The notes under the pieces are model-generated. The model was not told the DNA's origin. It saw only the letters and a program-made list of their open reading frames with translations, and did no database searches. This document shows, in pieces, positions 4,228-62,730 of a stretch of 64,000 nt of DNA. Origin of the DNA: Hemileia vastatrix. Taxonomy: Eukaryota > Basidiomycota > Pucciniomycetes > Pucciniales > Zaghouaniaceae. The translations under genes and the position numbers were made by a program. Positions within the stretch are counted from its first letter, which is position 1. Every line of letters begins with the position of its first letter. The stretch spans positions 17,006,212 to 17,070,211 of the forward strand of contig JASXTE010000008.1 of assembly GCA_030280995.1 (NCBI GenBank), written 5' to 3'.

Positions 4228-7200
4228 ATGAAGAGTAAAACTCTAAAAAAATCTGCCCATTTCCCCATTTTTCAACTGAACTTTCATAGATCTTTCTATG
4301 TGTTTCATTCTTTATTTAATGACCCAATACTGGAAACTTTGACATCCTTGTGTTACATGAGCCATTCTTCTCCCCTTAAAATTTCTCTCCTTCCCTGGCC
4401 AGGGGTTGGAGCCTGATATCTTCTCTCCACTCACCCTCTCCTTCTCATTCTACCCCTATTTGCTGTTGTTTTTATGTTAACAAAAAACTACCTATTCATC
4501 TCTTCACTGCAATATCAAGCCTGTCTCTTGATTTTAACCTTCCCCCTCTTTTTTTGATATGTGCTAACCTATATAATCCTCCTTTATCCTTCTCAAGCTC
4601 CCAATTTATAACCCTATCTTATCACAACTTTTTTAATATCCTCACCTTCCTCTTTTCAGACTCCAATTTGCATCATGACTTATGGGCCAGTCAAACCAAA
4701 CACCACTTTAATCATACCAAGTCCTTATTCTTCATAAACTCCCTCTCTGATCTGAACATTTCTATAGTCTCTCAAGCAGGCATTCTGACCTTTTTCAACA
4801 CCCAGAATTTTACCTCAGTGATTGACCTGATGTTTACAAACCATAAAGCCACTGTAAAGCTGTTTAGTTACATTAAAGAACAAGATGGTCCCTCTCTCAC
4901 CTATCTAACCACACAGCAATCACCATTCAAATCCTCCCTCTCCCTCTCCCCACTCTCCAAAGAAACTCATTCAGAAATTAGCAAAAGCTTGATGAGTCTT
5001 ATATCCATTCTTCTATCTCCTCTCTCCCCCATTTCCCCATCTTCTTCCCCCTCTTCTATTGAATTGGCTTCTAAAAAAGTCAACTCTCATCTTATTTAAA
5101 TAATTGAAAACTTTTTCCTTCTGCAGAAGCCCAGATTTTTGTGTCATGCATGGTGGAATTGCAGTATCTTGGATCCCCTCAAGAAGAACTTCTACCAAGC
5201 CCAGTGCCACATGAGGCTCTCCCCTGCACCACACCTCAAGGCTGAGCTCCTGTCAGTGAGAAAGTTTTTCAGTGCTAATATAAAATATCTTTGTAAACTT
5301 AATTAGAAAGAATATCTCTCTTCACTCAAGCCCTATACCCTCTTCAAACCAGCTAACTACAACTCTCATTTTTCTAACTCTTGGGTCAACCCTTCTCTGT
5401 TGAATCAAGATGAATTACTTATAATTGAAAATTTACTGAAGGCCTGTCTTCTCATTGAGGGAACTTCAGTAGCATCTATTTCTTGTGAACTATTAGATAC
5501 CAAAACTCCTCCCCCTCCTTCACTTGTCCCACCTTCTCCCCCCTTTGTGGTACAGGAGATCACTGGAGTTCTTTTCAACAAAAATAAAGGCAGGGCTCCT
5601 GGCCCAGACAGGATCCCCAACTCCCTCCTTCACTGCAACCCAAAAGCTGTGGCATACATTCTACTCCCTCTCTTCCATAAATTTCTTGAAATTGGACATT
5701 ATACTAACATCTGGAAGACTGTGAGAACAGTCATCATCCCTAAGCAAAATCTCCCAGACTATTCAGTCTCAGGCGCCTACTGTCTCATAGCCCTCCTCAA
5801 TACTATGGGGAGCTACTAGAGGCTTTAATAACCAAACACCTCTCCCATTAGATAGAAATAAAGCACTTGCTCCCTGAAACTCACTATGGAGGCTCTCCAT
5901 TCAGAAGCACATCAAACACTCTTCTTCACCTGACTACCTTGTCTTAAGACCAGTGGAGGAGAGGTAAAGTTGTTGGAGCCCTGTCTCTAGATGTAAAGGG
6001 AGAATTTCCATCAGTTAACAAAACTAGAATGTCCCATATTCTACCATCTCTACTTCTCCCCCATAAACTGGTCTCCCTAGTTGATAATTTTATGGTAGGC
6101 AGGAGAACTAGCATAGCTTTCACTACCTACAAATACCCAGTTTCTTTCTCTCCCAAGGGACTCCCACAAGGATCCCACTTTCTCAACACTTATATGTTAT
6201 CTATAATTATAAGCTCCTAACTCTCCCTTCCCTCTCTCATTCCTCACTTGCACTGGGTTACCTTGATGATGTGGTATACTTATAAAATAGCAAGGATACT
6301 TAGGTGGTGTTAGATGTACTCTTAAAGTTGGGAACAGAAGCAACTACATGGGGAACTAGACATGCTGCATTTTTGACTTTTCCAAGACTAAATTGATACT
6401 TTTAACCAAGAAAAAAAACATTCTAGCTTCACCTACTCCTCTCAAATTTGATGGATTTTTCCATAGCCCTTCTCCTACCCTGAAGTGGCTTGGAGTCCTC
6501 CTTGACGCCCTATTTTAACAAGTTAATAGAAGAAGGTCACCAAGCTTCTGCATCTATCCATTGTTTAGCTTCATCAGGCTGAGGAATTACTCTGAGAAAA
6601 TATAGCATGTTGATAAAATCTTTGGTAAATTCTAGAAAGGATTATGAATCTATCATCTGGCACAATACTAAGAGGAATTTGAGAACTACCCAACTTTTAC
6701 AGGTGGTGGGAAAAAAGCCCTAATAAGAGCCTTAGGCTACTTTCAATCCACACAGGTAAGGCTCCTCTTACATGGCTCACATTCCCTCCCCTTAAATAAG
6801 TGGTTAGACCTTACAATGAACAAAGCATGGGCAATACTCTTCAACATTCCATCCACAAACCCCATGGCCCAACTGGCTAAATCCCTCCCCAAATCACACC
6901 AGCATTAAATACACATATTTTCAAAAACAAATATATCCCCCCACCTTTCCTCCCCTGACTGACTTAGACTCCCTCCATCACTCCCCACTCCCACCTTGTC
7001 TTCACCCTTTTCCTATCTAACTTTGAAAGCTCAAAGGATTTGGCATGTTTCAGGATAAAAAAATTAATCTCATCCAAGCCTTCCTCTTCATAAATGATTT
7101 AAACCAACAGCTCCAAATCACAGTCAGGAAAATTTTCAGATGCTTTTTACCCTGGAAAAAGAATCCCATTTGTGGCTTGACTAGGTGACCAAAAACTCTA

Positions 7201-16456: not shown

Positions 16457-16921
16457 AGGGGGTCTCAAAAATACCATATGCACCTGGCAGACTTCAGTCT
16501 TAAAATCCCATTCCAAGATGCCATCATAAATGGATTGATTGGGGTTAGAAATGTCAAACATTAGGTAAAATACTTCATCAAATACTTCCTATTCTTGCAC
16601 CATTTTTGAAACCACAATTCAGCACACCAATACACTCATACCTTAAACCCACTGAAAATTAGATCCAGTTTCCCCCAACCCCACATTATCCTGTTTCTTT
16701 TTTTCTTCATCTAGATTTCCTGCTCAAATTTATATATTTGTCATCACTTTAAGTTTTTCATTTCCATCTCTTTCATCATCACCTTATCAAGCCCATGTTT
16801 AATTTTTCCTTCTATTTTATTCTGTCTTATCTCACCAAATATTTGTTAGGATTTCACTTTTTATCCATTAAATTTTATCATCCACTAATATTTCTGTTTT
16901 CTCCCTAGTTTTAACTCTCTT

Positions 16922-36330: not shown

Positions 36331-38160
36331 GTCTCTAATTTGCTGTAGCTAATAAATCTCACCTGGTATTTCTCAAAGTGACAGGGGTTTTTCTCTCCAG
36401 TTTTACTCCAACTCCCTTGGTCAAGGCCTATAGCTAGTATTATAGGATTGTCTAAAATGTATACAAAATAAAAGGGAGATTAAAATCTGGCAGTCCCAAT
36501 ATTGGAGCTAACATTAAACATTCCTTTAATTTATCAAATGCATGTTGTCTTTCATTATTCCAAATGAAAGCCTCATTTTTCCTGGTTAATGTTGTTAAAG
36601 GAGCTGCAATGGATATGTATTTTTTATATACTACCTATAATATCCACACATACCTAGAAAACTTTAAAAATCTTTTACATTTTTAGATATACTAATGTTT
36701 TTTATTGCTGCCACTTTATTCTGGTCAACACAAATTTGAAATCCAGATGCAACATGTCCAAGTACTTTCAAGGATTGAAACCCAAACTTACATTTCTTTA
36801 ATGCAATTGTCATATTAATTATATCCATCTTTTTAAATACTCTTTTCAGGTGATTTAAATTTTCATCATATGTTTTTGAAAACACTATGATGTCATAAAT
36901 ATAAGCTAAAAGCCATCCTTCAACCATTTCCTGATTAAAAACACTATCCATCAATTCTTGGAAGACTGAAGGGGCATTCTTTGGGCCAAAAGGAATTCTC
37001 ACATATTTATATATCCCCATGTGTGTGGTAATGAGTAAGAAATTCTGATAATTCTTTTCCACAGGAATCTGGTGGTAAACTTTGTTTCCATCCAGACAGG
37101 AAATATATTTTTCACCTTGTAAAGTAGCATGGATAGCGCTATCCTTGGGAGAGGGTAAATATCATCTACATTGAATGTATTCAGAGCTCTGTAATCACCA
37201 CATAATCTTGCCTTATTTTTTCATAAGAGATTAAAACTGGTGAAGTAACAAAATAATTAGTTGTTGTGTCTAATTTTCAATGATACCCATTTCTACAAAC
37301 ATTTTAATGTTGTCTTCAATGTTTTTCTTTTTTGCAGGAGAAGCTGTGTAAGGTTACTTTTTCAATCTTCCAGGAATATTATCCAAATCACAACTTTAAC
37401 AGATTTTTATCTCATGGTCTTTGATCAATCCTAGTTCATTTGAACCATGAGCAAATGCCATAGGATAAGATTTTATAAATCTCAAAATATTTTTTTCTTC
37501 AATTTTTTAGATTTGAGGACTGAAAGAGGCTTTTTGGCTTTCATTTTCCAATTCTACCACTTCAGAAGTGGTTCTTCCACCTTGGAGTTGTTCTTCTTTA
37601 GTAGCAATGGAATAAACTGAATTTTCAGAGTAAATCTTGAATTTTCTTTTCCCGTTCAGGCCTATAGTGAAGCAACTACTTGCGGGATCTAGTTTGATGC
37701 CAAATTTTGTCAATAAGTCATTGCCAATAATAAACCAATCACTACAATTATTTTTATCCATTACTAAAAATTCACATACTTCTCTTACATATCCATTATT
37801 ATATTTATAGAATACAGCAGTCTTGTATTTTCCAATTGGATGTTATACTGAGCGAAAACCACTCCAGTTCTTTGTCTGTGCAGGTTCCAGTTTTTCCTTA
37901 TACTTACTATCAAATTTCATTAATTTATTAATAAAAACTACACTACCTGCAGCCCCAGTTTCAAGAATGGCATTCATTTCTTTTCTACATATAATAAAAG
38001 GTGCTCTAATAGGTGTGATTTTGTAATTATCATGAGTTACATCTTTAATTATTTCAGCTTCCTCAATGGAAGTTAAAGATGTATCTGCATTAGGTATTGC
38101 ATCATTCTGGAACATAATATCCTGTTCTAAAACATATATCTAATTTTCATTATCACCTTA
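36331..38160 (-). pseudogene. Ty3/Gypsy protease-reverse transcriptase (copy 2)
   Basis: Protease region at 38115-37843 contains NAILETGAAGSVVFINKLM, where the catalytic DTG reads ETG. 37761-37507 is the spacer with WFIIGNDLLTKFGIKLD. RT runs from about 37480 to 36664 with NFLLITTHMGIYKYVRIPFG, NAPSVFQELMDSVF, AYIYDIIVFS and MTIALKKCKFGFQSLKVLGH. The YxDD motif reads YIYD, so the first catalytic Asp is lost. RNase H follows in fragments up to the Copia-like insertion. Frameshifts occur near 37140 and 37260. Confidence 0.85.
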
Positions 38161-47308: not shown

Positions 47309-47603
47309 AGGGGGTGTCAAGTGAGAAAATAAGCACTTAATTTAAGTTCTGGTTTTAACCCAGACTAACCATTACCTGCCAACCTCTAGATTTTGAAATA
47401 AATGTGCTATTTTTAAAATAATGAAACCAAACTTTCTAGTGGAGAAGGAGTGATTTGAATACAAAGATCACATAATTTCCATTTTAAAAAACACAAGTGT
47501 TGATGCTTTTGTGGTTAATAAATGTAAAATTATTCAAGTGCTGATTTGATCAAAGCTAATTGTAGAGTTTTTAAGAGCTGGTTTTCTGACTTTGATACCC
47601 ACT
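47309..47603. mobile_element. MITE with Harbinger-like AGGGGGTGTCAA ends (weak)
   Basis: Left end AGGGGGTGTCAAGTGAGAAAA after ATT (47306-47308). The right end read inward is AGTGGGTATCAAAGTCAGAAAA. The ends match each other and the MITE at 61784 (AGGGGGTATCAAAGTTAGAAA) with several changes. The right flank is TTT, not ATT. Probably an old copy of the same TIR family, 295 bp. Confidence 0.5.
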
Positions 47604-48464: not shown

Positions 48465-48944
48465 ATTAGGGGGTATCAATGTTGACTGATCCGCAATTCA
48501 ATTAATTGCAGATAAAAATCCTTATACCCCAATTATCTTCCGCAAATATTTTTGCTAATAATTGGGTTATTAGACACTTTACATGTCAATGTTCACCTCT
48601 TATCCAACATTTTTCTACTCAATTTTTCATAACCACATCTTGGACAACTTTCTGTTATAACCACATGTTGCACAACTTTCTGCCATAACCACATCTTAGA
48701 CTACTCTCTGGATATGCCTTCTACCTTGCTGCGCACTCCCATTCTCATCCCATCCTGTTCATTCTATCTGCTCAGAATTTCTCCCCATTTCATCTTTTTG
48801 ATCCTGCTACTTTCCATCTCACTCTCTCATCTGCTTGTTTCTGCTCCTTGTCATCTCACTATCTCATCTGCTTGTTTCTTCTACTTTTCATCTTGCTATC
48901 TAATCTGCTTGTTTCTGCTCCTTTTCATATTTAATTATGTTAAC

Positions 48945-50334
48945 ATGCCTTGTCATCATAGATCTTCTCAAAGGCAGCCATCACCCAGTTTTTCTTCAAA
49001 TCCCACTACTCCCTCTTTCCCCCGCTCTGCTGAGAAATCCAAAATTGTTCAACTGAAGAAAGATTATCATCTCATTCTTATCAACTGGCTAAAAACTTAA
49101 TCTAACTATGATTCTTTTTTGGGTACTGAGTATGCGACTAAAGTAGGACGCCCCCCCCCGCATCAAAAGTTAATGGTTATCTTCTAAAGGCCAATGAATT
49201 ACGGAATAAGACTAAGGGAAGGATAGATCTTTTACCAAAACAGATGTCTGAACGCTTCAAGCATTATCAAGCCAAGTACAAGAAGGAAAAGACTCTTTCA
49301 TCTTCTACTAGTTTTGGTATTACTGACCTTGATATCAGTAAGGGCATCAAATCCATAGAGGATAAACTTGATTCTTTATGTCCTTACTTTAAAGAGATGG
49401 ATTCTATTTTTGGAGAGCAAGCTGATGTTAATCCTAAAAAAATGTTGGATGGTGAAGATACTATCTCCAAACATGATGTCAAAAGAAATCTTTTTCCTTC
49501 TTCTTCTACTCAAGCCTCCTTTCATTTAACTTCCACAAATCAAGATATCTTTTCAATAGATCCTTATTGCAATATAAACCAACCTGATGTAACTCAAGTA
49601 TGTTTTTTTTCTTTTATCTTACCAATTTTTTTTATTTACATTTTCTTATTTATAAATAGGCTGAAGAACTAACGCAGGAGCCACAATCAACTGAGTCAGA
49701 AGCTAGCAAAAATGAAGAGGAGGAAAATTTGACCTTGAACAAAAATTGAAGGGCTTCAAGTAGTCTGAATATCCACTCTCAAAGAAGAAGAAAATGTGAT
49801 ACTTCATCTCAAGCCCCTTTTTCTTCTATCAAAGAATTTTTGGAGAAATGTGATGCTTGTAAGTGATACCAAACCTCTTAATACTTTACTCTTCTTTTCT
49901 TCTACTTTTTTTTAATATTTCTTATCACTCTAGAACAAGTGGAAGTTGCTAAAGATACTCTAAAGTTTGAAAAGCAAAAATACAAGCTCTCTTTAAGGAG
50001 GGATGACAGGGTATATGATTTGGAAGAGAAGAAGTTCGAACTCTCTTCACAGAAGGATGATAGGACACAAATCTTGGAGAGGAAGTACAAACTTTCTTTA
50101 CAGAAGGATGATAGGGCACAAGATTTGGAGGAGAAGAAGTTTGAGTTATCTCTAAGTATTGAAAAATCAAAGAAAGAGAAGAAAACACTAGAGCATCAAA
50201 ACATCATGGAACAGATGAAACATAAGCTCAATTGTGAAGAAAATTCCAAAAAGAAAGAATTCTTGATAGAATGTGTTAAAGCTAATAAATTGGTTGTGGA
50301 AATTGAATGTTTAATGAAATTGTTTGATGACTAG
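48945..50334 (+). pseudogene. Accessory DNA-binding/coiled-coil gene of Harbinger-like copy 2
   Basis: ATG at 48945 (MPCHHRSSQRQ). A helical N-terminal block (KKDYHLILINWLKT, a TAA at 49098, YDSFLGTEYATKVGRPP) is followed after a frameshift in a C9 run (49150-49158) by LLKANELRNKTKGRIDLL and MSERFKHYQAKYKKEKT. A linker follows (IEDKLDSLCPYFKEMDSIFG). Introns are likely at 49601-49659 (GTATGT to AATAG) and 49861-49933 (GTAAGT to CTCTAG). The last exon is strongly coiled-coil, with repeats of DDRxxDLEEKKFELS-like units of about 19 residues. Another stop lies near 49748. The layout suggests a SANT/Myb-like DNA-binding partner of the transposase that oligomerises through the coil. The DNA-binding role is inferred. 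Confidence 0.6.
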
Positions 50335-50504
50335 TTTGTTTTATTTATCTCACACTTCAACTATTCATAATTTTTACATAAAATTTTATCTTAATTTCGT
50401 GTATTTTTTTACTCTATCCATCATTAGTTGAATTTTCATATTTTAATGTTATAAATTCTCTTTTAAATAAAATTTTTAAGAATTTTTAATGTTCAAATTT
50501 TTTT

Positions 50505-50960
50505 TTTAGTTTAAATTTTCAAGTCACATTTGAAAATTTCCCAATCCCACCCCTGAATTTGATTGAACTAATGGGTGGGTATCACCAAAATTCTTTCAAG
50601 TAAAGAATTTTGCAAGTCTTATATGAAATTTTGGCAATACTCTTCCCTACATTTTATTGAAGTAATGGATGGGTATCACCAAAATTTCAAGTTAAAATGT
50701 TTTTTAAGTCTGATATGAAAATTTGGCAATACCCCCCCCCTGTATTATATTGAATTAAGGAAAGGGCATCATCAAATTTTCAACTCAAATTTTTTTTTTA
50801 AAATCTGATATGAAAATTTGGCAATACCCCCCCCCTCCCCTGTATTTTATTGAATTAAGGAAAGGGTATCATCGAAATTTTCAAGTCAAATTTTTTTTAA
50901 GTCTGATATGAAAATTTGGCAATACCCCCCCTGCCCCCCCTGCAATTTATTGAATCAAAG
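50505..50960. repeat. Tandem array of about 90-105-bp units with TIR-like edges
   Basis: About five units repeat the order GGGTATCACCAAAATT, TTTTTAAGTCTGATATGAAA, ATTTGGCAATACCCCCC, TGTATTTTATTGAATTAAGG. Each unit starts with GGGTATCA, as in the element TIR, and ends with an inverted partner (GGCAATACCCCC), so each could fold alone. The C-runs grow in length along the array. Confidence 0.75.
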
Positions 50961-50965
50961 AAATC

Positions 50966-51330
50966 AAATGGAAAAAAAATTAAAATTGAAAATTTCTACA
51001 ACCAATTATTTTCACCAGTCCCAATCAAGTTTTCCTATTTATATAATAGCCATTGGAATGACCTAAGGCCAGATGCGCCATTATATAAAAACAGTAATCT
51101 ATCTTGATGTAACTTTAAAAAATAATTGGAAGAGACAAATCCAAAATTAAATGAAAAAATTAAAACTGAAAATTTCTACAACCAATTATTTTCACCAGTC
51201 CCAATCAAGTTTTCCTATTTTATATAATAGCCATTGGAATGACCTAAGTCCAGATGCACCATTATATAAAAAAGTAATCTATCTTGATGTAACTTTAAAA
51301 AATAATTGGAAGAGACAAATCCAAAATTAA
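50966..51330. repeat. Two tandem copies of a 180-bp unit
   Basis: ACTGAAAATTTCTACAACC, TTTTCACCAGTCCCAATCAA, ATAGCCATTGGAATGACC and ATCTATCTTGATGTAAC occur at about 50985-51110 and again at about 51165-51290 with few differences, so the duplication is recent. No gene is seen in it. Confidence 0.8.
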
Positions 51331-51496
51331 ATGAAAAAAATTTAAAAGGATAAATAAAATTGAAAAAGAGGAAAATAAAAAGGGATGTTTAAAAAAAATT
51401 AAAATAATTAATATAATTTAAAAAATTATTAAAAGAGAAAAAAAAAGGAAAAAAAATTTGGAAGAAAATATTTAATGATAGAAAAAATATAATATT
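51331..51496. other. A-rich spacer between tandem repeat and oxygenase gene
   Basis: Built of A-runs and TTAAAA words; probably the 3' flank of the oxygenase gene. Confidence 0.4.
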
Positions 51497-52851
51497 TTAT
51501 TTGCAATACTTGACAGATCTACTAAGAACAATTTTTTTATCTAATTTTTTTTGATCATTAATACGATTAATAAGACCTTCATTTATTTGGAATGAACAGC
51601 CAAAATGGGTAAATTCTTTACAAGAAACTAAAGTTTGAGGTGCTTTAGTTGTTTGATGCCGATGTTGAGAAGAATTCCATATAGCCTCACCTATTTCATT
51701 GGCACTACCAAAATCAATAATACATTTATGGTCAGGAAAATAAAGGACATGTCCCTCATCAGAAGAGAGTGATGGAGTAGGAACACCAGTCTCTGGATTA
51801 ATATAAGAGAAAATTCCAAATGTTAGAGAATTCTTATCATGTTTATCTAGATGAACATGATTATAAAATCCATTATAAGTGATGATAACATTTGAACAAA
51901 AAACATTATCATTTATTGCTTCTTCCCATTCAGGATCAGACCAATTTGGTAAATCATATTCTAAAGCAAGTTGATGGTTTTTTTTTGAAAATCTTGAAAA
52001 CATAATTTTTTGTAACAATTTTCCAAGAAAATATTAAATGATCCCAAGGAATTCCATTGTTTCAGATCTTCTTCCATTTGCTCCGGTTTCAAATTTTTCA
52101 AGAAAGAATAAATTCCTGAAATATATGACAAAATTAAAAATTACTTATAATAAAAAAATTTTTACATACCAAAAGAAACTCCTTGATCATATCCTGGTTG
52201 CCAACCAATACCTTTCATCACACCAGAAATCAGATTTTTATTTGATAAGGGTTTTCAAACCAAAGCCATTTGATAGAGAGTAGAAATTAAATCAGAAAGT
52301 TGGCAAAAAACTTCATCCTTTTTCCCATTAAATGAATGAACCACTAAGATGAATTGAGGTTTGTATCCATTATTGACAACTGCAACAATGAGATCTATAC
52401 CACCTTCTGTAAGGTTTTTGATGTTTTTGTAAAAAATAAAATTCTTAACATTTGATATTGAAATCTTATAAAATTTGAGATTGTCCAAATATCCAAAGAA
52501 TTTTTTGCAAAATATCTTCATCCTAATCAATTTTCTATTTTGATAAAATTTTGTCTTTGAATTGCTTGATTCTTTAGCTGGTTCCATGATTTTCTGCTTT
52601 TTATTTTCTGGTAAGGAAAGCTCATATTGATTGGAATAAGGAATAGAATTGAAGGACATTGAAGAGATAGAAAAAAGTAAAGATAAAGAAGAAGAATTTG
52701 AATATATTTGATAATTATTCTTGGAGCTTTCAAGATTTGAAGACAAGGAAGAAAGTGATGATAAAGATGATTCAGAAGATATTGATGATAATGAAGATGA
52801 GCGAGTTAAATTTTCCATAGTAACTTCCTGGAAAAAAAAATTATAAAACAA
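51497..52851 (-). pseudogene. TET/JBP-like 2OG-Fe(II) dioxygenase, copy 2 (one stop, one frameshift)
   Basis: Reading 5' to 3' on the - strand: a serine-rich low-complexity N-terminus (SSLSSISSESSLSSLSSL), the block GGIDLIVAVVNNGYKPQF, LSDLISTLYQMALV with a TGA at about 52250, VMKGIGWQPGYDQGVSFG, an intron (GTATGT to TTTCAG, about 52180 to 52120), GIYSFLKNLKPEQMEEDL, then a frameshift near 52050 into an open frame of 173 residues. That frame holds YNGFYNHVHLDKHDKNSLTF with the HxD iron ligands (His56, Asp58), GHVLYFPDHKCIIDFGSANE, WNSSQHRHQTT with the probable distal His, and FTHFGCSFQINEGLINRI. Order and spacing fit the fungal TET-like oxygenases, which are linked to transposons in mushrooms and rusts. 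It sits next to and in the same direction as the transposase. Confidence 0.75.
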
Positions 52852-53097
52852 AAAAATTAAAAATTAAAAAATTAAAAAATAAATATATTAAAAAAACCCC
52901 CAACAATAAAATATTATCAGTAAAATAATTGAAAAGAAAAAAAAAATTTGGTAAAAAAAAACAAAAAAAATCAGTAAAAATTTTTGAAAAAATAAAATTT
53001 CAAAATAAAAACCTGAATTATAATTAAAATACAAGGTAAAACAAAATCACCCAAAAAAAAACACACAAATAAAAAAAATTAAATAACCTTATTTATT

Positions 53098-53596
53098 TTG
53101 GAAACAGGGGGAAATGTCCAGAAACTAAGGGAAAGAAATAAAAATTCTGTAAAAAAAATTAAAAAGCAGAGATTAGTTTTTTTTTTCTTCAAAATGCCCT
53201 CCTTACCCACCTCAACCCCCCTCCCCCACTTTAAACCCTCCTTACCAGCCTCAAACCCCCCCTTTAGTCCCCCTTTACCCTCCCTTTACCCCCCCTTTAC
53301 CCCTTCTTTACCCTCTACTTAGCCACCTCAAACCCCCCTTTACCCTCCCTTTACCCCTTCTTTACCCCTTCTTTACCCCCCCTTTACCCCCTCCTTGGCC
53401 CCCTCAATCCCCCCCCTTACCCCTTCCTTGACCCCCTTAAGCCCACCCTTTACCCCCTCAGACCCACTTTACCCCCTCAGACCCACTTTAACCCCCCCCC
53501 CTCAGACCCACTTTAACCCCCCCCCCTCAGACCCACTTTAACCCCCCTCCCTTGAACCCCTCCAAACCCCCCCCCTACACCTAACTTATCAAATTG
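53098..53596. repeat. C-rich arm of a large fold-back (CCCTTTACCCC minisatellite)
   Basis: From about 53205, variants of CCCTTTACCCCCC, CCTCAAACCCCC and CAGACCCACTTTA repeat irregularly to the hairpin tip. It is all C-rich on this strand. ORFs through it are compositional. Confidence 0.8.
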
Positions 53597-53613
53597 TTAC
53601 CAATTTGATAAGT
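53584..53613. repeat. Tip hairpin of the fold-back
   Basis: ACTTATCAAATTG, loop TTAC, CAATTTGATAAGT: a perfect 13-bp stem with a 4-nt loop at the axis between C-rich and G-rich arms. Confidence 0.9.
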
Positions 53614-53865
53614 AGGTGGTGGGGGGGGTGGAGGGGTTTGAGGGGGCCAAGAAGGGGGTAAAGGGGGGGCTTGAGGGGGCCAAGGAGGCGTTAAAGGGGG
53701 AAAAGTGGGGGAGTTTGAGGCAGGCAAGGAGGGTGTAAAGGGGGGGTTGAGGTGGGCAAGGAGGGATTAAAGGGGGGAGTTGAGGTGGCCAAGAAGGGGA
53801 GAGAGAGGTGTATGGAGGAAAACAAGGAGGCAGGAAAGGGGAATGATGGAGGGTGAAAAAAAAGA
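53614..53865. repeat. G-rich arm of the fold-back
   Basis: Reverse-complement partner of the C-rich arm: GGGGGGTGGAGGGGTTTGAG, GGGCCAAGAAGGGGGTAAAG, GGGGTTGAGGTGGGCAAGG. Long G-runs in series could also form quadruplexes. Confidence 0.8.
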
Positions 53866-54039
53866 TAAAAATGGTAAAGATGATAAAACAAAAAAACAAA
53901 ATTAGTCTAACCTTGAAAAACAAAAAAAAAGCACTTACAGGACAAAAATAAAATAAAAAAAAGGACAAAAAAACAAAGGGAAAAAATAAATTATTAGCAA
54001 GTAAAAAAAACCAAAAATAAGAAAAAAAATGACTTACCT

Positions 54040-54772
54040 GGAGAGATGAGATGAGAAATAGAGGAATGAAATAGAGGAATTGAAAATATTTGACTGATGT
54101 TTGAGGAGAGGTTGAAAAGGATATGAGTAATGAATGAAAAAAAACACTGACAAAATATGTGATTTCAGAAAATATGCAATTTCATGTTGAGCTGGTGAAA
54201 GAAAACCAATGAGCCATCCAAAAAAAAGAGAAGCGCTTCCGAGCCTTCTAGCACCAAGGGGGGGGGGGTCTGCCTGACATTGGGAGGCCCTCCTGGAGGC
54301 GGCTGGAACACCCTGAAGCCAAAAAACCACCAAAAACCTCCAATAAAGCCCAAAATACTTAGAAAAATCCACTGCAACTATTAAAACCCTTAAAACACAA
54401 AGTTAAGCTATGACAACATTTTGACATAAAATATAGAGCCAAATTAGCTCTACTTAATGGTACTAAGCACTTAACCCTAAGACTAAAGTTTAGCCCTTAA
54501 AACACAAAAAACAAAAGTAAACAGCTATCTTTTAGAAATGAAAAATGAGTAAATGACCCCTTAAAACTTGGAATATGAAAAATATCATCAAGACATCAAA
54601 TATAGAGAAAAACAAGGGCTATCTAATGGTGGTCACCACATACCTGTAGTCCCAATATCTACTGAATAAAATCAGAAAAATACTCAATTATTCAACCAAT
54701 GCCAATTAAGGCATACCAAAACAACGCCAAACATAGCTAAAAAGGTGTCTGCCAATGTTGGAAGATCACACC
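54040..54772 (-). repeat. Copia-like LTR fragment inside Harbinger-like copy 2
   Basis: On the - strand it starts TGTGATCTTCCAACATTGG at 54772 and follows the repeat at 35408 through GTTTTAAGGGGTCATTTACTC, TAGAGCTAATTTGGCTC, AAGTATTTTGGGCTTTATTG and GAAGGCT. The far end of the LTR is not seen, so the left limit is approximate. It separates the fold-back from the transposase gene. Confidence 0.6.
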
Positions 54773-54870
54773 ATAAATTCAAAAAAAAAATGAATTTAAT
54801 CAAACAAAAATACCAAAACAAGTGAATAAAGTACACAAAGTGGACATGTGGAGAGCACCAAAATAAAATT

Positions 54871-56095
54871 TTAAAAGTGTTGTGAAGTGAAATGTTGGAG
54901 AGTGATTGGCATTATAATGGATTGTATGCCGGTTAATTGAATGTTTTGTGATTCAAGGAAGGGGAGAGCTCGTGCTGTTTTAGGATCCTCTTCTTGATAA
55001 AGATCATTCCACTCATCCTTTAAATCAGCTAGGATATTGTGGTGTATAACGCAAGTCATGATCCAATGATTCGCAGTTTTGATCTCCAATTTTTTTTGAA
55101 ATTGGATTCTGAGCTCCCAAAGACTAGAAAATTGTCCCTTTAAAATACCTATAGCATGTTCAATCTGTACTCTTGATTGGGAAAGGTGATAATTAAAATT
55201 AGTTTTGGTATCATTTTTAAAGGTTGCACCACAGAAAGCAGGTATAATGTACTTCCCACTTGCATATGCTGGGTCTGCAAGGAGGTACTGAGATTTTTCA
55301 AAGTATGAGTCTGGGGTTTGAGAAATCCTCATTCTTTGGAAGATGGAAGAGTCATGAAATGATCCAGGGCAGCCACTGTGAAAAGCAATAAATTTTTTAT
55401 TGACATCACATATAAGTTGAACAGCAATAGAGTATCTAGAAGGAAGATAAAAAGTTAGTTCATGAATGATGAGAAATTGGAGAAGATTTTGAACAAACCT
55501 TTTTTTGCAATCAAAATAATGGTTCCCATCATGAGCAGGCTTTTGGCTCAAAGGTATAGTTGTGCCATCAACAAAACCAACACAGCCAGGGAAACCTTTG
55601 GCTTGCATTACTTGAGAGGATTCAAGTCATTGCTCTGGAGTTGGCCAAGCAAGTGTTTGAGACTTGTGGGAAAGGATAGCAATCATACAGTGCTTGGTGT
55701 ATAATATCACAGTACCATATCCTATGTTAAATAGATTATCCAAATGTCTTACAGCAGCACCATTTCCATTTGAGCCAAAGCGACATAGTGCAACAGCAAG
55801 TTGAATGGCAGGATTACGCTGTTTGTTATGGGAATTGTTATGAAAGATAGGATGTTCAGAGATGAGTTGATAAAGTTTGAAGAAATAATTGGGTGAAGTT
55901 CTAAATAGCTGAGTGAAGTTTAGTTGAGGAATGTTGAGAATGGAGTGGAGATCATATCGGGGATCATGATAAAGATTTGGCCCCCTGGAAATGAGGTAAC
56001 ACTTTTTTGGAAAGAAAACAAAAATAGGCTAAAGCATCTTCCAAATCAGAGTCAGATTTATAGTAGAGAACTAAAAGTAAAGTGATAGCATTCAT
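54871..56095 (-). pseudogene. PIF/Harbinger-type DDE transposase (HARBI1-like), copy 2
   Basis: ATG at 56095 (MNAITLLLVLYYKSDSDLED). A frameshift in an A-run near 56012 leads to YLISRGPNLYHDPRYDLHSI, FFKLYQLISEHPIFHNNS and LAVALCRFGSNGNGAAVRHL, the usual helix-turn-helix-like N-terminal part. A TGA lies near 55629. The catalytic domain from 55608 has GFVDGTTIPL (first Asp), an intron (GTTTGT to TTCTAG, about 55503 to 55439), YSIAVQLICDVNKKFIAFHS, GSFHDSSIFQRM, YLLADPAYASGKYIIPAF (second Asp) and RVQIEHAIGILKGQF (Glu). The DDE triad is intact, so only about two lesions disable it. It cuts and pastes elements with these TIRs, including the MITEs. Confidence 0.85.
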
Positions 56096-56414
56096 AGTGG
56101 AGTGAAGTAGCCGTCTAGTAGAGAGGTGCTTCATTCTTGTCGGTAGTATAGGTGTTGGTAGAAGGTTTAGGTGATGTGTGGGAAGTGGGAATTCACCGCC
56201 AAATGTGCATTTGGGGTGTGTAGATAAAAAAAAACTTAAGTGTTTGCCACCAAAATTAAGTAGCATAGAGTGAGGAGAGACTTAAGGGTGGAATCAGCAA
56301 TTATAAGTCATGTGACTTTCTTAAAAATCCATCATGGATGTGATGAGTTTGGGATCAGGAAGTAGGAATGGAAATTGGGGTATAAGAGGCAGGATAATGC
56401 ATTATCATGGATTC

Positions 56415-56446
56415 CTTATCCACTAGCCCCGGGGCTAGTGGATAAG
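56415..56446. repeat. Perfect 32-bp palindrome near the right TIR
   Basis: The arm CTTATCCACTAGCCCC is followed without a spacer by its exact reverse complement. It is about 83 bp inside the right end. The GC-rich centre (CCCCGGGG) contrasts with the AT-rich surroundings. No equivalent is seen near the left end. Confidence 0.9.
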
Positions 56447-56532
56447 AATCTTCCGCAATTAATAATGTCTGATCCCGGGAAAAAAAATTCTGATTTCTAA
56501 TTGCGGATCCCTGAACATTGATACCCCCTATT

Positions 56533-60419: not shown

Positions 60420-62730
60420 TAAGAAATTTACGAGTATTTACTAAATTTTTTTTCCACGGCAGCCATGACAGGAGAATTAGAAAGGAGCGCAGAAGTAGTG
60501 AAAGGGATTTTGTGTTTAGTAACTATTCTAATAAGAGTATGACGGATAACAGAATCAGCAGGGTAAAAAAGTAAAACATGTTACAGCATATCCTTTGCCC
60601 CCGAGGAGTAGAGGGTGAAAATTAGAGAGTCAGCTGCCTTGAAACAAAAGAGGTAGTTTTTTAGAGGGGAGTTGCTAGAACAACATTGGGAAAAAGCTGT
60701 GGCCAGTGGTCTTGAGAGAATTGAGAGTGATTTGAAAATTTGAGAGGGCTCATATTTTCCTCTGAGTTTCCTAAGAACATCTGGTGATGGAAGAGAGAAG
60801 ATCGATGTGATTTTAAGAAGGATTTTAAAGTGGTCACATAGGGGGGGGGGCAAAAGAAAAGAAAGACTCAGCAAAAGGGGCCAGAGAGTTGACCACCTCA
60901 TCGCCTGGGATGCTCACCTGGCCTGGGCACCATTGCAGTCTCACTTTCAGAGTGGGGTTATACTCAAGAATTTGGTGGACCACATGCTCTATAGCAATAA
61001 ACCCTGATGTGTTAGGAGAAGGTGAGGATAGGGAAGATAACTTCTTGATTACCACATGACTGTCTGAGAGAATTGTGACTGATGCAAGGATGCTATGGAA
61101 GGGATTAGTTAAAAAGAGCCAAAGCCCTAAAAGAACACCCACCAGCTCTACCTCATAGACTGAGTAGAGAAAAGCATCTCCTAGTCCAGTAACAAAGGAA
61201 AGAAGAAAGCCAGGATCAAAGGCAGCAGAAAAATCACCCTCCTTTGATCTTGAGCTGTCAGTGTAGATATAGTGTGAAGGTAAGACGTGAGATGAAAAAG
61301 AGTGGTAAACATTCTTGATGGCTATTTCCTTGGATGAGGCAATGACCTTCTCAAAAGGAGGAGGGGCCTATAGAGGGAAAGTTGCTCCTGTTTTCAAGTC
61401 CATGGAAGTGAGGTGAAAGAAGGAGGGGAAGAAATGGGGAGAGGATAGGAAGTGAAGAGGGTGAAGGTGTGATTTAGGCAAAGGGGAGTTGAGGACGGAT
61501 TTGGAAAGTCATGCCATAGGTTTGGAAGAGGGAATGGTGAGAAGTCTTGCCCAGGCTTTGCATACCACAATATCTAAGCATTGTTTACTTGGAAGAGAAG
61601 CTGAGTCATGGAGGAGGAAGCACACTAGTGTGGAACAGAAACAACCAAGTGCTCTTTGGGTGGCCCTATTGTCAACAACTTGCAACATCTGTGTAGTTCA
61701 TGATGTTTTCCTTGGGTTGTACCAAACAATAGCAGTATAGTCTATTCTAAAATGAATGAGAGAGGAAATGAGAAGCTTATATTAGGGGGTATCAAAGTTA
61801 GAAATTTGTAATTATTTAAAAGGCATTTCACAACACAAAAAGAAAGCCACAAACTTGACATTAACTCTCAATAAAAAGGTGTTTTGGGGGCACAATATGC
61901 CATATTTTAAAAAATTGTCATGGTTAATTTGGTGGAAAAAAGAGGTATTTTGAAATGGAAGATTTCTAACTTTGATACCCCCTATTGATGGAGTGGGATA
62001 CCCCAGCCAGATGATGCAAGTCAGTGGATGGTGGTGGCAGCTTGAAGGCCTTTGGTAACAAGCTTAGTGCTTTGGTGCTTAAAAGAGAGGGTAGAGTCAA
62101 GTCCCATTCCCAACCACTTGATTGAGAGGACAGACATAAATGTTTGACTGTTGAAAATAAGGGAGGGAGGAGACTTTAAGAGGGGAAGACATTTAGTTAG
62201 TAATAACCATTTGGTTTTAGGTACATCAAAAACAGCTGTGTGTGAACAACCCCAGGTGAGGGCCTCATCACCTAATTTTGACAGAGCATGGGTAACATTA
62301 TTTGGTTCTTTGTCAGCTGTAAGGAATATAACATCATAAATACATCCTATTGCTAAGCTGGACTGGGACAGAGAAAGGAGAGTGAGTAAAGTAGAATTGC
62401 AGATAATGTATAAAAGAGGAGATAAAGGGGAGCCTTGAGGGAGGCCCTTAAGGAAAAAGGCATGGGGAGACTCATATGTGGAGAAATAAATACTGGTGTT
62501 GCAACCCTCAAGGGAATTAGTGATAGGATCAATCAAGTCTTGAGGGAGCAGGAGTGAAAGGAGAGTTTTTCAAAGACATTGAATGTTCATTGACGGAAAA
62601 GTACCTTTGATGTCTAGAGAAAGAGTACCAACCACTTTAACTTTCTGACACTGGTCCTTTGTCCAGACAGTGAGGTGAAGTAAAGCATCAGAGAAAAGAT
62701 AAGACAACCTTTTGTACAGCCTTACATACA
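60420..62730 (-). pseudogene. LINE ORF2 fragment (RT and RNase H), broken
   Basis: RT motif A LSLDIKGTFPSMN is near 62625-62585, then KGLPQGSPLSPLLY (about 62460-62419) and GCIYDVIFLT, where the catalytic YxDD has lost its first Asp. Thumb-like KWLGMGLDSTLSFKHQ follows. After the MITE insertion comes RNase H with LSDSHVVIKKL and LQWCPGQVSIPGDEVVNSLA (61142-60834), then a C-terminal part rich in Phe/Leu with the Cys/His motif eroded (FCFKAADSLIFTLYSSG). It closely resembles the end of the first LINE. Stops and frameshifts make it inactive. Confidence 0.75.
61784..61983. mobile_element. 200-bp MITE of the Harbinger-like TIR family
   Basis: Left end AGGGGGTATCAAAGTTAGAAAT and right end read inward AGGGGGTATCAAAGTTAGAAAT are identical for 22 bp (first 20: AGGGGGTATCAAAGTTAGAA). 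Flanks are ATT at 61781-61783 and 61984-61986. The first 12 bases equal the TIR of the 8-kb element at 48468. It lies within the LINE fragment between RT and RNase H. Nearly identical ends point to a recent insertion. Confidence 0.85.

What the first reader, a model, noticed from the sequence alone, without database searches (positions are those of the whole stretch)
48468..56529. Harbinger-like transposon that carries a TET-like dioxygenase
One element with clear TIRs and ATT flanks encloses a HARBI-type DDE transposase, an accessory coiled-coil protein and a TET/JBP-like 2OG-Fe(II) oxygenase. From known work, fungal TET-like genes are linked to Kyakuja/Dileera/Zisupton transposons; linkage to a HARBI-type transposase within one set of TIRs is, to my knowledge, unusual. 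If the oxygenase oxidises 5-methylcytosine, the element would carry its own counter-silencing enzyme.
Basis: partly seen in the sequence, partly recalled or inferred. Interest (0 to 1): 0.92.

Follow-up and report, generated by a model that had tools for sequence, protein, structure and literature searches.

The report
Transposon family carrying a TET-like oxygenase
This is a worn copy of a very abundant fungal jumping gene that carries, next to its own transposase, a relative of the enzymes that erase DNA methylation; such elements were described in rust fungi in 2025, but this family duplicates a different target sequence and its oxygenase gene appears to have been swapped between copies.

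Summary
Window 48468-56529 is one Harbinger-superfamily (PHIS) element with 16-bp inverted repeats and ATT flanks. It holds a DDE_Tnp_4 transposase, a Tet-like 2OG-Fe(II) oxygenase (Pfam PF20515, E 7e-25) and a coiled-coil accessory gene. All three are interrupted in this copy.

It belongs to a huge family: at least 3,613 transposase and 4,612 oxygenase motif copies in a 747.6-Mb genome. On one contig stretch, 5 of 9 full-size inverted-repeat pairs hold the oxygenase, 1 is a chance pair and 3 are unresolved.

Kojima (2025) reported TET-positive Harbinger elements ("PHISTA") in rust fungi. This family differs in two ways. Its target duplication is 3 bp, AWT (1,558 matched versus 14 in one of the two mismatched classes), not TA, which fits the Pangu group of Han et al. 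Its genes are mosaic: transposase, oxygenase and accessory gene give three different nearest-relative patterns (at least 996 of 1000 bootstraps each).

Counter-silencing is the likeliest role: copies show strong CpG-to-TpG decay, and oxygenase types diverged under constraint. Activity on 5-methylcytosine is untested. The host species was not identified.

The parts
48468..56529 (.). whole element, 8062 bp
   Evidence: exact terminal inverted repeats and matching ATT flanks
48465..48467 (+). left target-site duplication ATT
   Evidence: 3-bp duplication established genome-wide
56530..56532 (+). right target-site duplication ATT
48468..48483 (+). left terminal inverted repeat AGGGGGTATCAATGTT
56514..56529 (-). 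right terminal inverted repeat, same 16 bp
54871..56134 (-). transposase gene (DDE_Tnp_4), one in-frame stop at 55627-55629 and one frameshift between 55964 and 56028; uninterrupted in other copies (e.g. L052, 455-aa frame)
   Evidence: start position inferred from L052/L056
55159..55569 (-). catalytic D (55567-55569), D (55273-55275), E (55159-55161), assigned by eye within the DDE_Tnp_4 match
   Evidence: assignment is inference
51497..52818 (-). Tet-like 2OG-Fe(II) oxygenase gene: exon 1 52170-52818, GT-AG intron 52116-52169 (54 bp, inferred), exon 2 51497-52115; in-frame stop at 52255-52257 and a frameshift near 51988
   Evidence: splice sites inferred from sequence
51656..51853 (-). Fe(II) facial triad: H (51851-51853) and D (51845-51847) of HxD, distal H (51656-51658), assigned by eye
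   Evidence: HLD/HID and HQTT kept in window-type (A) and B-type copies, with losses in decayed copies
48945..50334 (+). accessory gene: N-terminal region with weak Myb/SANT-like match, charged coiled-coil-like C-terminus, about 3 exons (boundaries approximate); stop at 49098-49100 and frameshift before 49142
54229..54769 (.). 540-bp segment between transposase and oxygenase in the window element and about a third of the fetched transposase loci; a 79% identical copy sits at another place inside element L074
61784..61983 (.). 200-bp non-autonomous element (MITE) with the same 12-bp ends and ATT flanks, one of 1,558 such copies

Best explanation
The window holds a decayed copy of a high-copy, three-gene DNA transposon of the Harbinger (PHIS) superfamily. 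Shown: the ends, the 3-bp AWT target duplication, the DDE_Tnp_4 transposase, the Tet-like oxygenase with its HxD...H iron site, the accessory gene, and their recurrence in the same order in other copies. Inferred, steps in order: (1) the transposase, probably helped by the Myb/SANT-like accessory protein, cuts and pastes the full element and also moves the 200-bp MITEs that share its ends; (2) the host methylates CpG in the copies and they decay by CpG-to-TpG change; (3) the element-encoded oxygenase oxidises 5-methylcytosine at or near element copies, delaying silencing or mutation so that the family keeps expressing its transposase; (4) the oxygenase gene is a module that has been exchanged between otherwise closely related elements, so that different oxygenase versions ride on nearly the same transposase. 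By target duplication and termini the chassis fits the Pangu group of Han et al. rather than the TA-duplicating PHISTA lineage of Kojima.
For: Profile matches PF20515 and PF13359; B-type oxygenase exon 2 of L073 E 9.1e-31. Same gene order in 4 of 5 fetched inverted-repeat pairs (L070, L071, L073, L074); the fifth, L072, is a chance pair with unlike ends and unlike flanks. Of 14 transposase/oxygenase hit pairs within 12 kb in the two top-150 lists, all 14 have the same order and strand, 13 at 3.1-5.5 kb and one at 11.5 kb; against a second transposase list (93 of 100 listed places) 7 of 8 pairs agree and one is reversed. Copy number: 3,613 transposase 28-mers and 4,612 oxygenase 34-mers with up to 3 mismatches, controls 0. 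Target duplication: MITEs with ATT/ATT or AAT/AAT flanks 804 + 754, with AAT/ATT 14 (ATT/AAT not counted); 28 of 30 transposase loci have a readable end, 15 AAT and 13 ATT. Long-term constraint on the oxygenase: A versus B median dN/dS 0.19 over 90 pairs. CpG decay: C-to-T at CpG 57/192 against 110/5351 elsewhere in 33 transposase copies. Module exchange: nearest pair W-B for the transposase (1000/1000), L074-B for the oxygenase (998/1000), W-L074 for the accessory N-terminus (996/1000).
Against: No enzyme activity, expression or methylation data were available. This copy is broken in all three genes. Within 30 window-type (A) oxygenase copies dN/dS is 0.85, against 0.41 among 30 transposase copies (435 pairs each; the transposase set mixes A and B types), so recent constraint on the A-type oxygenase is weak or masked by decay. 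Iron-site residues are lost in 3 of the 6 aligned A-type copies. The copies carrying the oxygenase did suffer strong CpG decay, so any protection is incomplete. The residue equivalent to CcTET Asp337, which one search's text calls essential for 5mC, appears to be Phe here (my own ungapped count). No solved TET chain is found by sequence. Pangu membership rests on termini and target duplication; no transposase tree could be made with published families. The accessory Myb/SANT match is below Pfam's cut-off and absent in 2 of 4 copies. 3 of 9 full-size repeat pairs were not resolved.
Confidence: 0.6

Rival explanations
1. It is simply another PHISTA family of Kojima 2025. The TA duplication given there and the AWT duplication here would be two readings of the same flanks (ATTA|GGGGG...CCCCC|TATT shows TA on both sides as well as ATT on both sides).
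For: Same gene content: transposase, TET/JBP-like gene, third protein; rust fungi are the only hosts named for this combination in the sections read, Austropuccinia psidii among them. Figure 1 of that paper shows one representative insertion per family (legend), and a single insertion of the kind seen here cannot tell TA from AWT.
Against: The published text says TA duplications and no Myb/SANT domain in the third protein, and places the lineage near or inside Nuwa. Here the duplication is AWT (1,558 versus 14) and the third protein has a weak Myb/SANT match. No PHISTA sequence could be compared.
Confidence: 0.35
2. The oxygenase is a passenger or acts on something other than 5-methylcytosine, and adds nothing to silencing escape.
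For: dN/dS near 0.85 among A-type copies; HxD or distal H changed in 3 of 6 aligned A-type copies (L026 and L033 HxE, L034 YxD, L033 also the distal H); elements decayed at CpG in spite of it; related CMD1 modifies 5mC differently according to Kojima's text.
Against: A versus B dN/dS 0.19 (90 pairs) and within B 0.24 (3 pairs); iron-site residues kept in both types; retained in thousands of copies.
Confidence: 0.25
3. The oxygenase belongs to a separate element nested inside the Harbinger-type element, so the linkage is accidental.
For: Pieces do move about here: the 540-bp segment sits at different places in the window element and in L074.
Against: Same order, strand and similar spacing in independent insertions; of 64 inverted-repeat pairs in 50300-54900, the 25 longest include none that brackets the oxygenase except AT-rich pairs of 73-77%; linkage conserved across A and B types whose oxygenases differ at dS about 1.4-1.8.
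Confidence: 0.03
4. The unequal divergence of the three genes reflects gene-specific rates or element-specific decay, not exchange.
For: L074's transposase is decayed (best stretches 61-68% identical), and oxygenase dS near 1.5 is close to saturation, with wide bootstrap ranges. Accessory C-terminal distances are mixed.
Against: The contrast is in synonymous distance and in which pair is nearest, which differs between genes with 996-1000 of 1000 bootstraps; whole-element decay would raise all genes of one copy alike.
Confidence: 0.1

Closest known systems
PHISTA, TET-positive Harbinger families of rust fungi (Kojima 2025, PMC12730594)
   Same: Harbinger-type DDE transposase, TET/JBP-like dioxygenase and a third protein in one transposon; proposed escape from methylation silencing
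   Different: published duplication is TA and the third protein lacks Myb/SANT; here AWT and a weak Myb/SANT-like match; copy number here in the thousands; oxygenase exchange seen here within one family. Sequence relation not testable here.
Pangu group of the PHIS superfamily (Han et al. 2015, PMC4482050), Harbinger2 in Repbase according to Kojima
   Same: ANT target duplication (here AWT only), inverted repeats beginning AG, 11-40 bp long, DDE transposase plus a second gene, present in basidiomycetes
   Different: no oxygenase mentioned in the Pangu section; published autonomous average about 3.5 kb against 7.0-8.2 kb here; transposase tree not made. The paper is not consistent about the second gene: no known motif in its section 6, Myb/SANT in its discussion.
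Kyakuja/Dileera/Zisupton TET-positive transposons
   Same: DNA transposon carrying a fungal TET/JBP-like gene
   Different: transposase here matches DDE_Tnp_4 and other DDE families only; 3-bp duplication, where the paper gives 8 bp for Zisupton-1_PGr
CcTET (Coprinopsis cinerea), AG type
   Same: HxD...H iron site of the TET/JBP group
   Different: positions three and nine after the HxD aspartate are Asp and Phe here, not the Gly/Ser and Asp described for CcTET and Kyakuja (text; my own ungapped count); no TET chain found among solved structures by sequence

Membership tests
PF20515 Tet-like 2OG-Fe(II) oxygenase | profile score above the curated cut-off | tested here: met
   88.7 bits against 27 for the window exon 2; 107.9 for L073
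PF20515 Tet-like 2OG-Fe(II) oxygenase | iron-binding HxD and distal H | tested here: met
   HLD/HID and HQTT in window, L016, L020, L070, L073; changed in L026 (HLE), L033 (HLE and RNQTT) and L034 (YLD)
TET enzyme acting on 5-methylcytosine | oxidation of 5mC in DNA | not testable with these tools
   no assay; related enzymes differ in activity
Kojima AG type | Gly/Ser and Asp at the positions three and nine after the HxD aspartate | tested here: not met
   Asp and Phe in window and B-type (own ungapped count)
Kojima PE type | HxE in place of HxD | tested here: not met
   HxD in the window, L016, L020 and B-type copies; the HxE of L026 and L033 stands among HxD relatives and is taken as decay
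Kojima PU type | PU-specific conserved residues (paper's Figure 7, not held as text) | not testable with these tools
   left by elimination only
PHISTA | TA target-site duplication | tested here: not met
   3-bp AWT: matched 1,558, mismatched 14 in the one class counted
PHISTA | third protein without Myb/SANT domain | tested here: inconclusive
   weak Myb_DNA-bind_4, E 0.0053 and 0.022 in 2 of 4 natural copies, below cut-off
PHISTA | transposase clusters with the PHISTA clade | not testable with these tools
   no published PHISTA sequence reachable; protein database search switched off
Pangu (PHIS group) | 5'-ANT-3' target-site duplication | tested here: met
   only AAT and ATT were counted or seen
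Pangu (PHIS group) | inverted repeats of 11-40 bp beginning AG or GG | tested here: met
   AGGGGGTATCAATGTT, 16 bp exact
Pangu (PHIS group) | transposase in the Pangu clade next to IS5 | not tested
   only a weak IS5-family NCBIfam match, E 5.8e-8, far below cut-off
Harbinger/PHIS superfamily | DDE_Tnp_4 transposase | tested here: met
   E 1.8e-22 (window), 1.4e-25 (L052)

The most novel reading that the evidence does not exclude
A separate, so far unreported capture: a TET-positive Pangu-type lineage (3-bp AWT duplication) that has grown to thousands of copies in one genome, in which the oxygenase is an exchangeable cassette passed among elements, so that new oxygenase versions are tried on the same transposase in a contest with CpG methylation.
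Probability: 0.4. Interest if true: 0.72.

Novelty: new variant of a known kind. Interest (0 to 1): 0.52.

Why it matters
If true, one genome holds thousands of naturally diverged copies of a methylation-eraser-like gene with their target sites, mutational decay record and non-autonomous relatives. That makes the question whether such genes really protect their transposons directly testable by comparing methylation and CpG decay around copies with A-type, B-type or no oxygenase. It also bears on a remark in Kojima 2025 that high copy number may be why retrotransposons lack such genes: here a DNA transposon with the gene is in the thousands.

Tried and rejected
A TA duplication, first read from the flanks, was rejected by the flank counts. 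A third oxygenase type suspected in L056, L053 and L068 (my notes) was withdrawn for L056, whose exon 2 is B-type at closer spacing; in L053 and L068 no oxygenase exon 2 was recognised within the 1.5 kb held. A structure model of the window's exon 2 alone was useless (mean pLDDT 36.8) and was not used or searched. The PDB sequence search with the oxygenase profile gave no TET chain. The exact-motif linkage test on C2 (8 of 23 transposase places with an exact oxygenase motif within 10 kb, each with one on the same strand 2.1-3.8 kb downstream; one of the 8 also has a motif 2.8 kb upstream) is weak as a rate, because both lists hold exact matches only. A splice model of L033 printed no long frame.

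Literature searches behind the novelty statements: (no paper); some searches sought the host. Of the titles and abstract beginnings listed, only Kojima 2025 joins TET/JBP genes to Harbinger elements; the other listed papers were not opened, except PMC9456177, PMC12774611 and PMC4482050, of which I saw passages (and section 6 of the last).
Full report
OBSERVATION. The element at 48468-56529 is real. Its two ends are identical for 16 bp and both flanks read ATT. The genome (G000, 747.6 Mb, 791 contigs) contains the 12-bp end 8396 + 8278 times, against 10 + 7 for the reversed pattern. On the minus strand lie a DDE_Tnp_4 transposase (E 1.8e-22) and, downstream of it, a Tet-like 2OG-Fe(II) oxygenase (PF20515, E 7.2e-25). 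On the plus strand lies an accessory gene with a charged, coiled-coil-like C-terminus. All three frames are interrupted in this copy. Uninterrupted frames exist elsewhere: the transposase in L052 (455 aa open frame) and both oxygenase exons in L073.

RECURRENCE. 150 of 150 scored oxygenase places match the window exon at E below 1e-79, out of 12,619 loose candidates of which only 150 were scored; likewise 150 of 150 for the transposase out of 15,257 loose candidates. Of 30 fetched oxygenase loci (one is the window itself), 28 also show exon 1 and 19 the accessory C-terminus; some of the others may not reach far enough. From the end pattern's first 100 places (C2:0-5.23 Mb) there are 9 adjacent +/- pairs 3-10 kb apart, in fact 5.5-8.2 kb; longer pairs were left out. 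I fetched 5 of these 9: L070, L071, L073 and L074 carry transposase, oxygenase and accessory gene in the window's order; L072 carries none at E 1e-4 and its ends and flanks do not match each other, so I take it as a chance pair. Of the 4 not fetched, one holds an exact oxygenase motif. So 5 of 9 hold the oxygenase, 1 is a chance pair and 3 are unresolved. Of 14 transposase/oxygenase hit pairs within 12 kb in the two top-150 lists, all have the same order and strand, 13 of them 3.1-5.5 kb apart and one 11.5 kb; with 93 exact transposase-motif places, 7 of 8 pairs agree (3.3-4.9 kb) and one is reversed. Motif counts with up to 3 mismatches: 3,613 transposase and 4,612 oxygenase, controls 0; decayed copies are missed, so both are lower bounds.

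TARGET DUPLICATION. The flanks ATTA|GGGGG...CCCCC|TATT could be read as TA or as ATT. In the 200-bp MITEs with the same ends, ATT/ATT and AAT/AAT flanks occur 804 + 754 times and AAT/ATT 14 times, controls 0 (the ATT/AAT class was not counted). With a TA duplication the middle base of the flanking triplet would vary independently on the two sides. The duplication is therefore 3 bp, AWT. The window element and L070, L071, L073, L074 agree, as do all 8 MITE-size pairs on C2:0-5.23 Mb. One MITE with an altered end, in L008, shows unlike flanks. In 30 transposase loci, 28 have a readable end: 15 AAT, 13 ATT.

MOSAIC. The window (A-type) and the B-type elements (L052/L069, L070, L071, L073) are 88-90% identical over the first 1.75 kb with the transposase, but only 66-68% identical in the oxygenase, and 76-89% identical towards the other end. 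Synonymous distances, window against L070 and L073: transposase 0.17 and 0.16, oxygenase exon 2 1.54 and 1.77. Over 30 A-type oxygenase copies against 3 B-type copies, mean dS is 1.76 and median dN/dS 0.19; the corresponding transposase comparison (30 copies of mixed type against L070 and L073) gives 0.15 and 0.39. Among W (window), B (L070, L073) and L074, the nearest pair is W-B for the transposase, L074-B for the oxygenase and W-L074 for the accessory N-terminus, in 1000, 998 and 996 of 1000 codon bootstraps. The accessory C-terminal distances are more mixed. I read this as exchange of modules, the oxygenase above all. Against function in the A type: within A, oxygenase dN/dS is 0.85 while 30 transposase copies of mixed type give 0.41 (435 pairs each).

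METHYLATION CONTEXT. Observed/expected CpG is 0.094 in the rest of the window and 0.16 in the element, 0.19-0.36 in the four B-type elements and 0.105 in L074. In 33 transposase copies, C-to-T at CpG is 57/192 against 110/5351 at other C; in 30 oxygenase copies 21/60 against 61/2481. This is the pattern expected of CpG methylation and deamination, so a substrate for a 5mC oxidase is likely to have existed. It also shows that the elements were not fully protected.

COMPARISON. Kojima 2025 (PMC12730594: outline, search passages, sections 10, 23, 34 and part 1 of 24 read; supplements and figures not seen) lists TET-positive Harbinger (PHISTA) families from six rusts, with TA duplications and a third protein without Myb/SANT, and proposes counter-silencing. 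Han et al. 2015 (PMC4482050: search passages and section 6 read) sort this superfamily by target duplication. Their Pangu group has ANT duplications and repeats of 11-40 bp starting AG or GG; Kojima's text equates Pangu with Harbinger2. Their section 6 reports no known motif in the second Pangu gene, their discussion says Myb/SANT. The element here meets the duplication and terminus criteria of Pangu and not the TA criterion of PHISTA. The accessory protein's Myb/SANT match (E 0.0053 and 0.022 in 2 of 4 natural copies, below cut-off) is suggestive only. A TET-positive Pangu family is not among the lineages named in Kojima's abstract and sections read, and no title or abstract beginning listed names one (one search found no paper). 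No transposase tree could be made, so the separate-lineage reading stays open.

HOST. The species was not identified. Large size, low GC (0.31 in the window), extreme CpG loss and the oxygenase type suggest a rust fungus (Pucciniales); this is inference. The A. psidii paper PMC12774611 (search passages only) describes CpG loss there too, but its haploid genome is about 1 Gb.

VERDICT. A real feature and a new variant of a published kind. The added points are the AWT duplication, the scale in one genome and the exchange of oxygenase modules.

Holding the draft against the calls changed these points: the transposase set mixes A and B types; the 14th pair is also in order but 11.5 kb apart; the oxygenase frameshift lies near 51988; a search for repeat ends around the oxygenase was added.

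Noticed in passing
window 61784-61983: 200-bp non-autonomous element with the same 12-bp ends and ATT flanks; 1,558 such MITEs with matched AWT flanks in the genome, many in two recognisable end types.
   Followed up: partly
window 47309-47320 and 16457-16468: ATT|AGGGGGTGTCAA and ATT|AGGGGGTCTCAA, variant ends that may mark further related families; a similar end lies in L046 at 3588.
   Followed up: no
window 54229-54769: 540-bp segment shared at 79% with a piece at another position inside L074; perhaps a small mobile element of its own, no clear repeat ends seen by eye.
   Followed up: partly
window 53190-53850: C-rich then G-rich CCCTTTACC-like tract inside the element between transposase and oxygenase, forming long imperfect inverted repeats (e.g. 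53223-53336 with 53633-53746, 76%); similar proline-rich low-complexity frames show in other copies.
   Followed up: partly
window 4380-5096, 36667-37161, 62024-62569: Fragments of reverse transcriptase or endonuclease-reverse transcriptase genes, degraded retroelements around the element (the last is just below Pfam's cut-off).
   Followed up: no
L057 3157-3161: Two elements back to back with exactly ATT between their ends, as if one inserted next to the other's target duplication.
   Followed up: no
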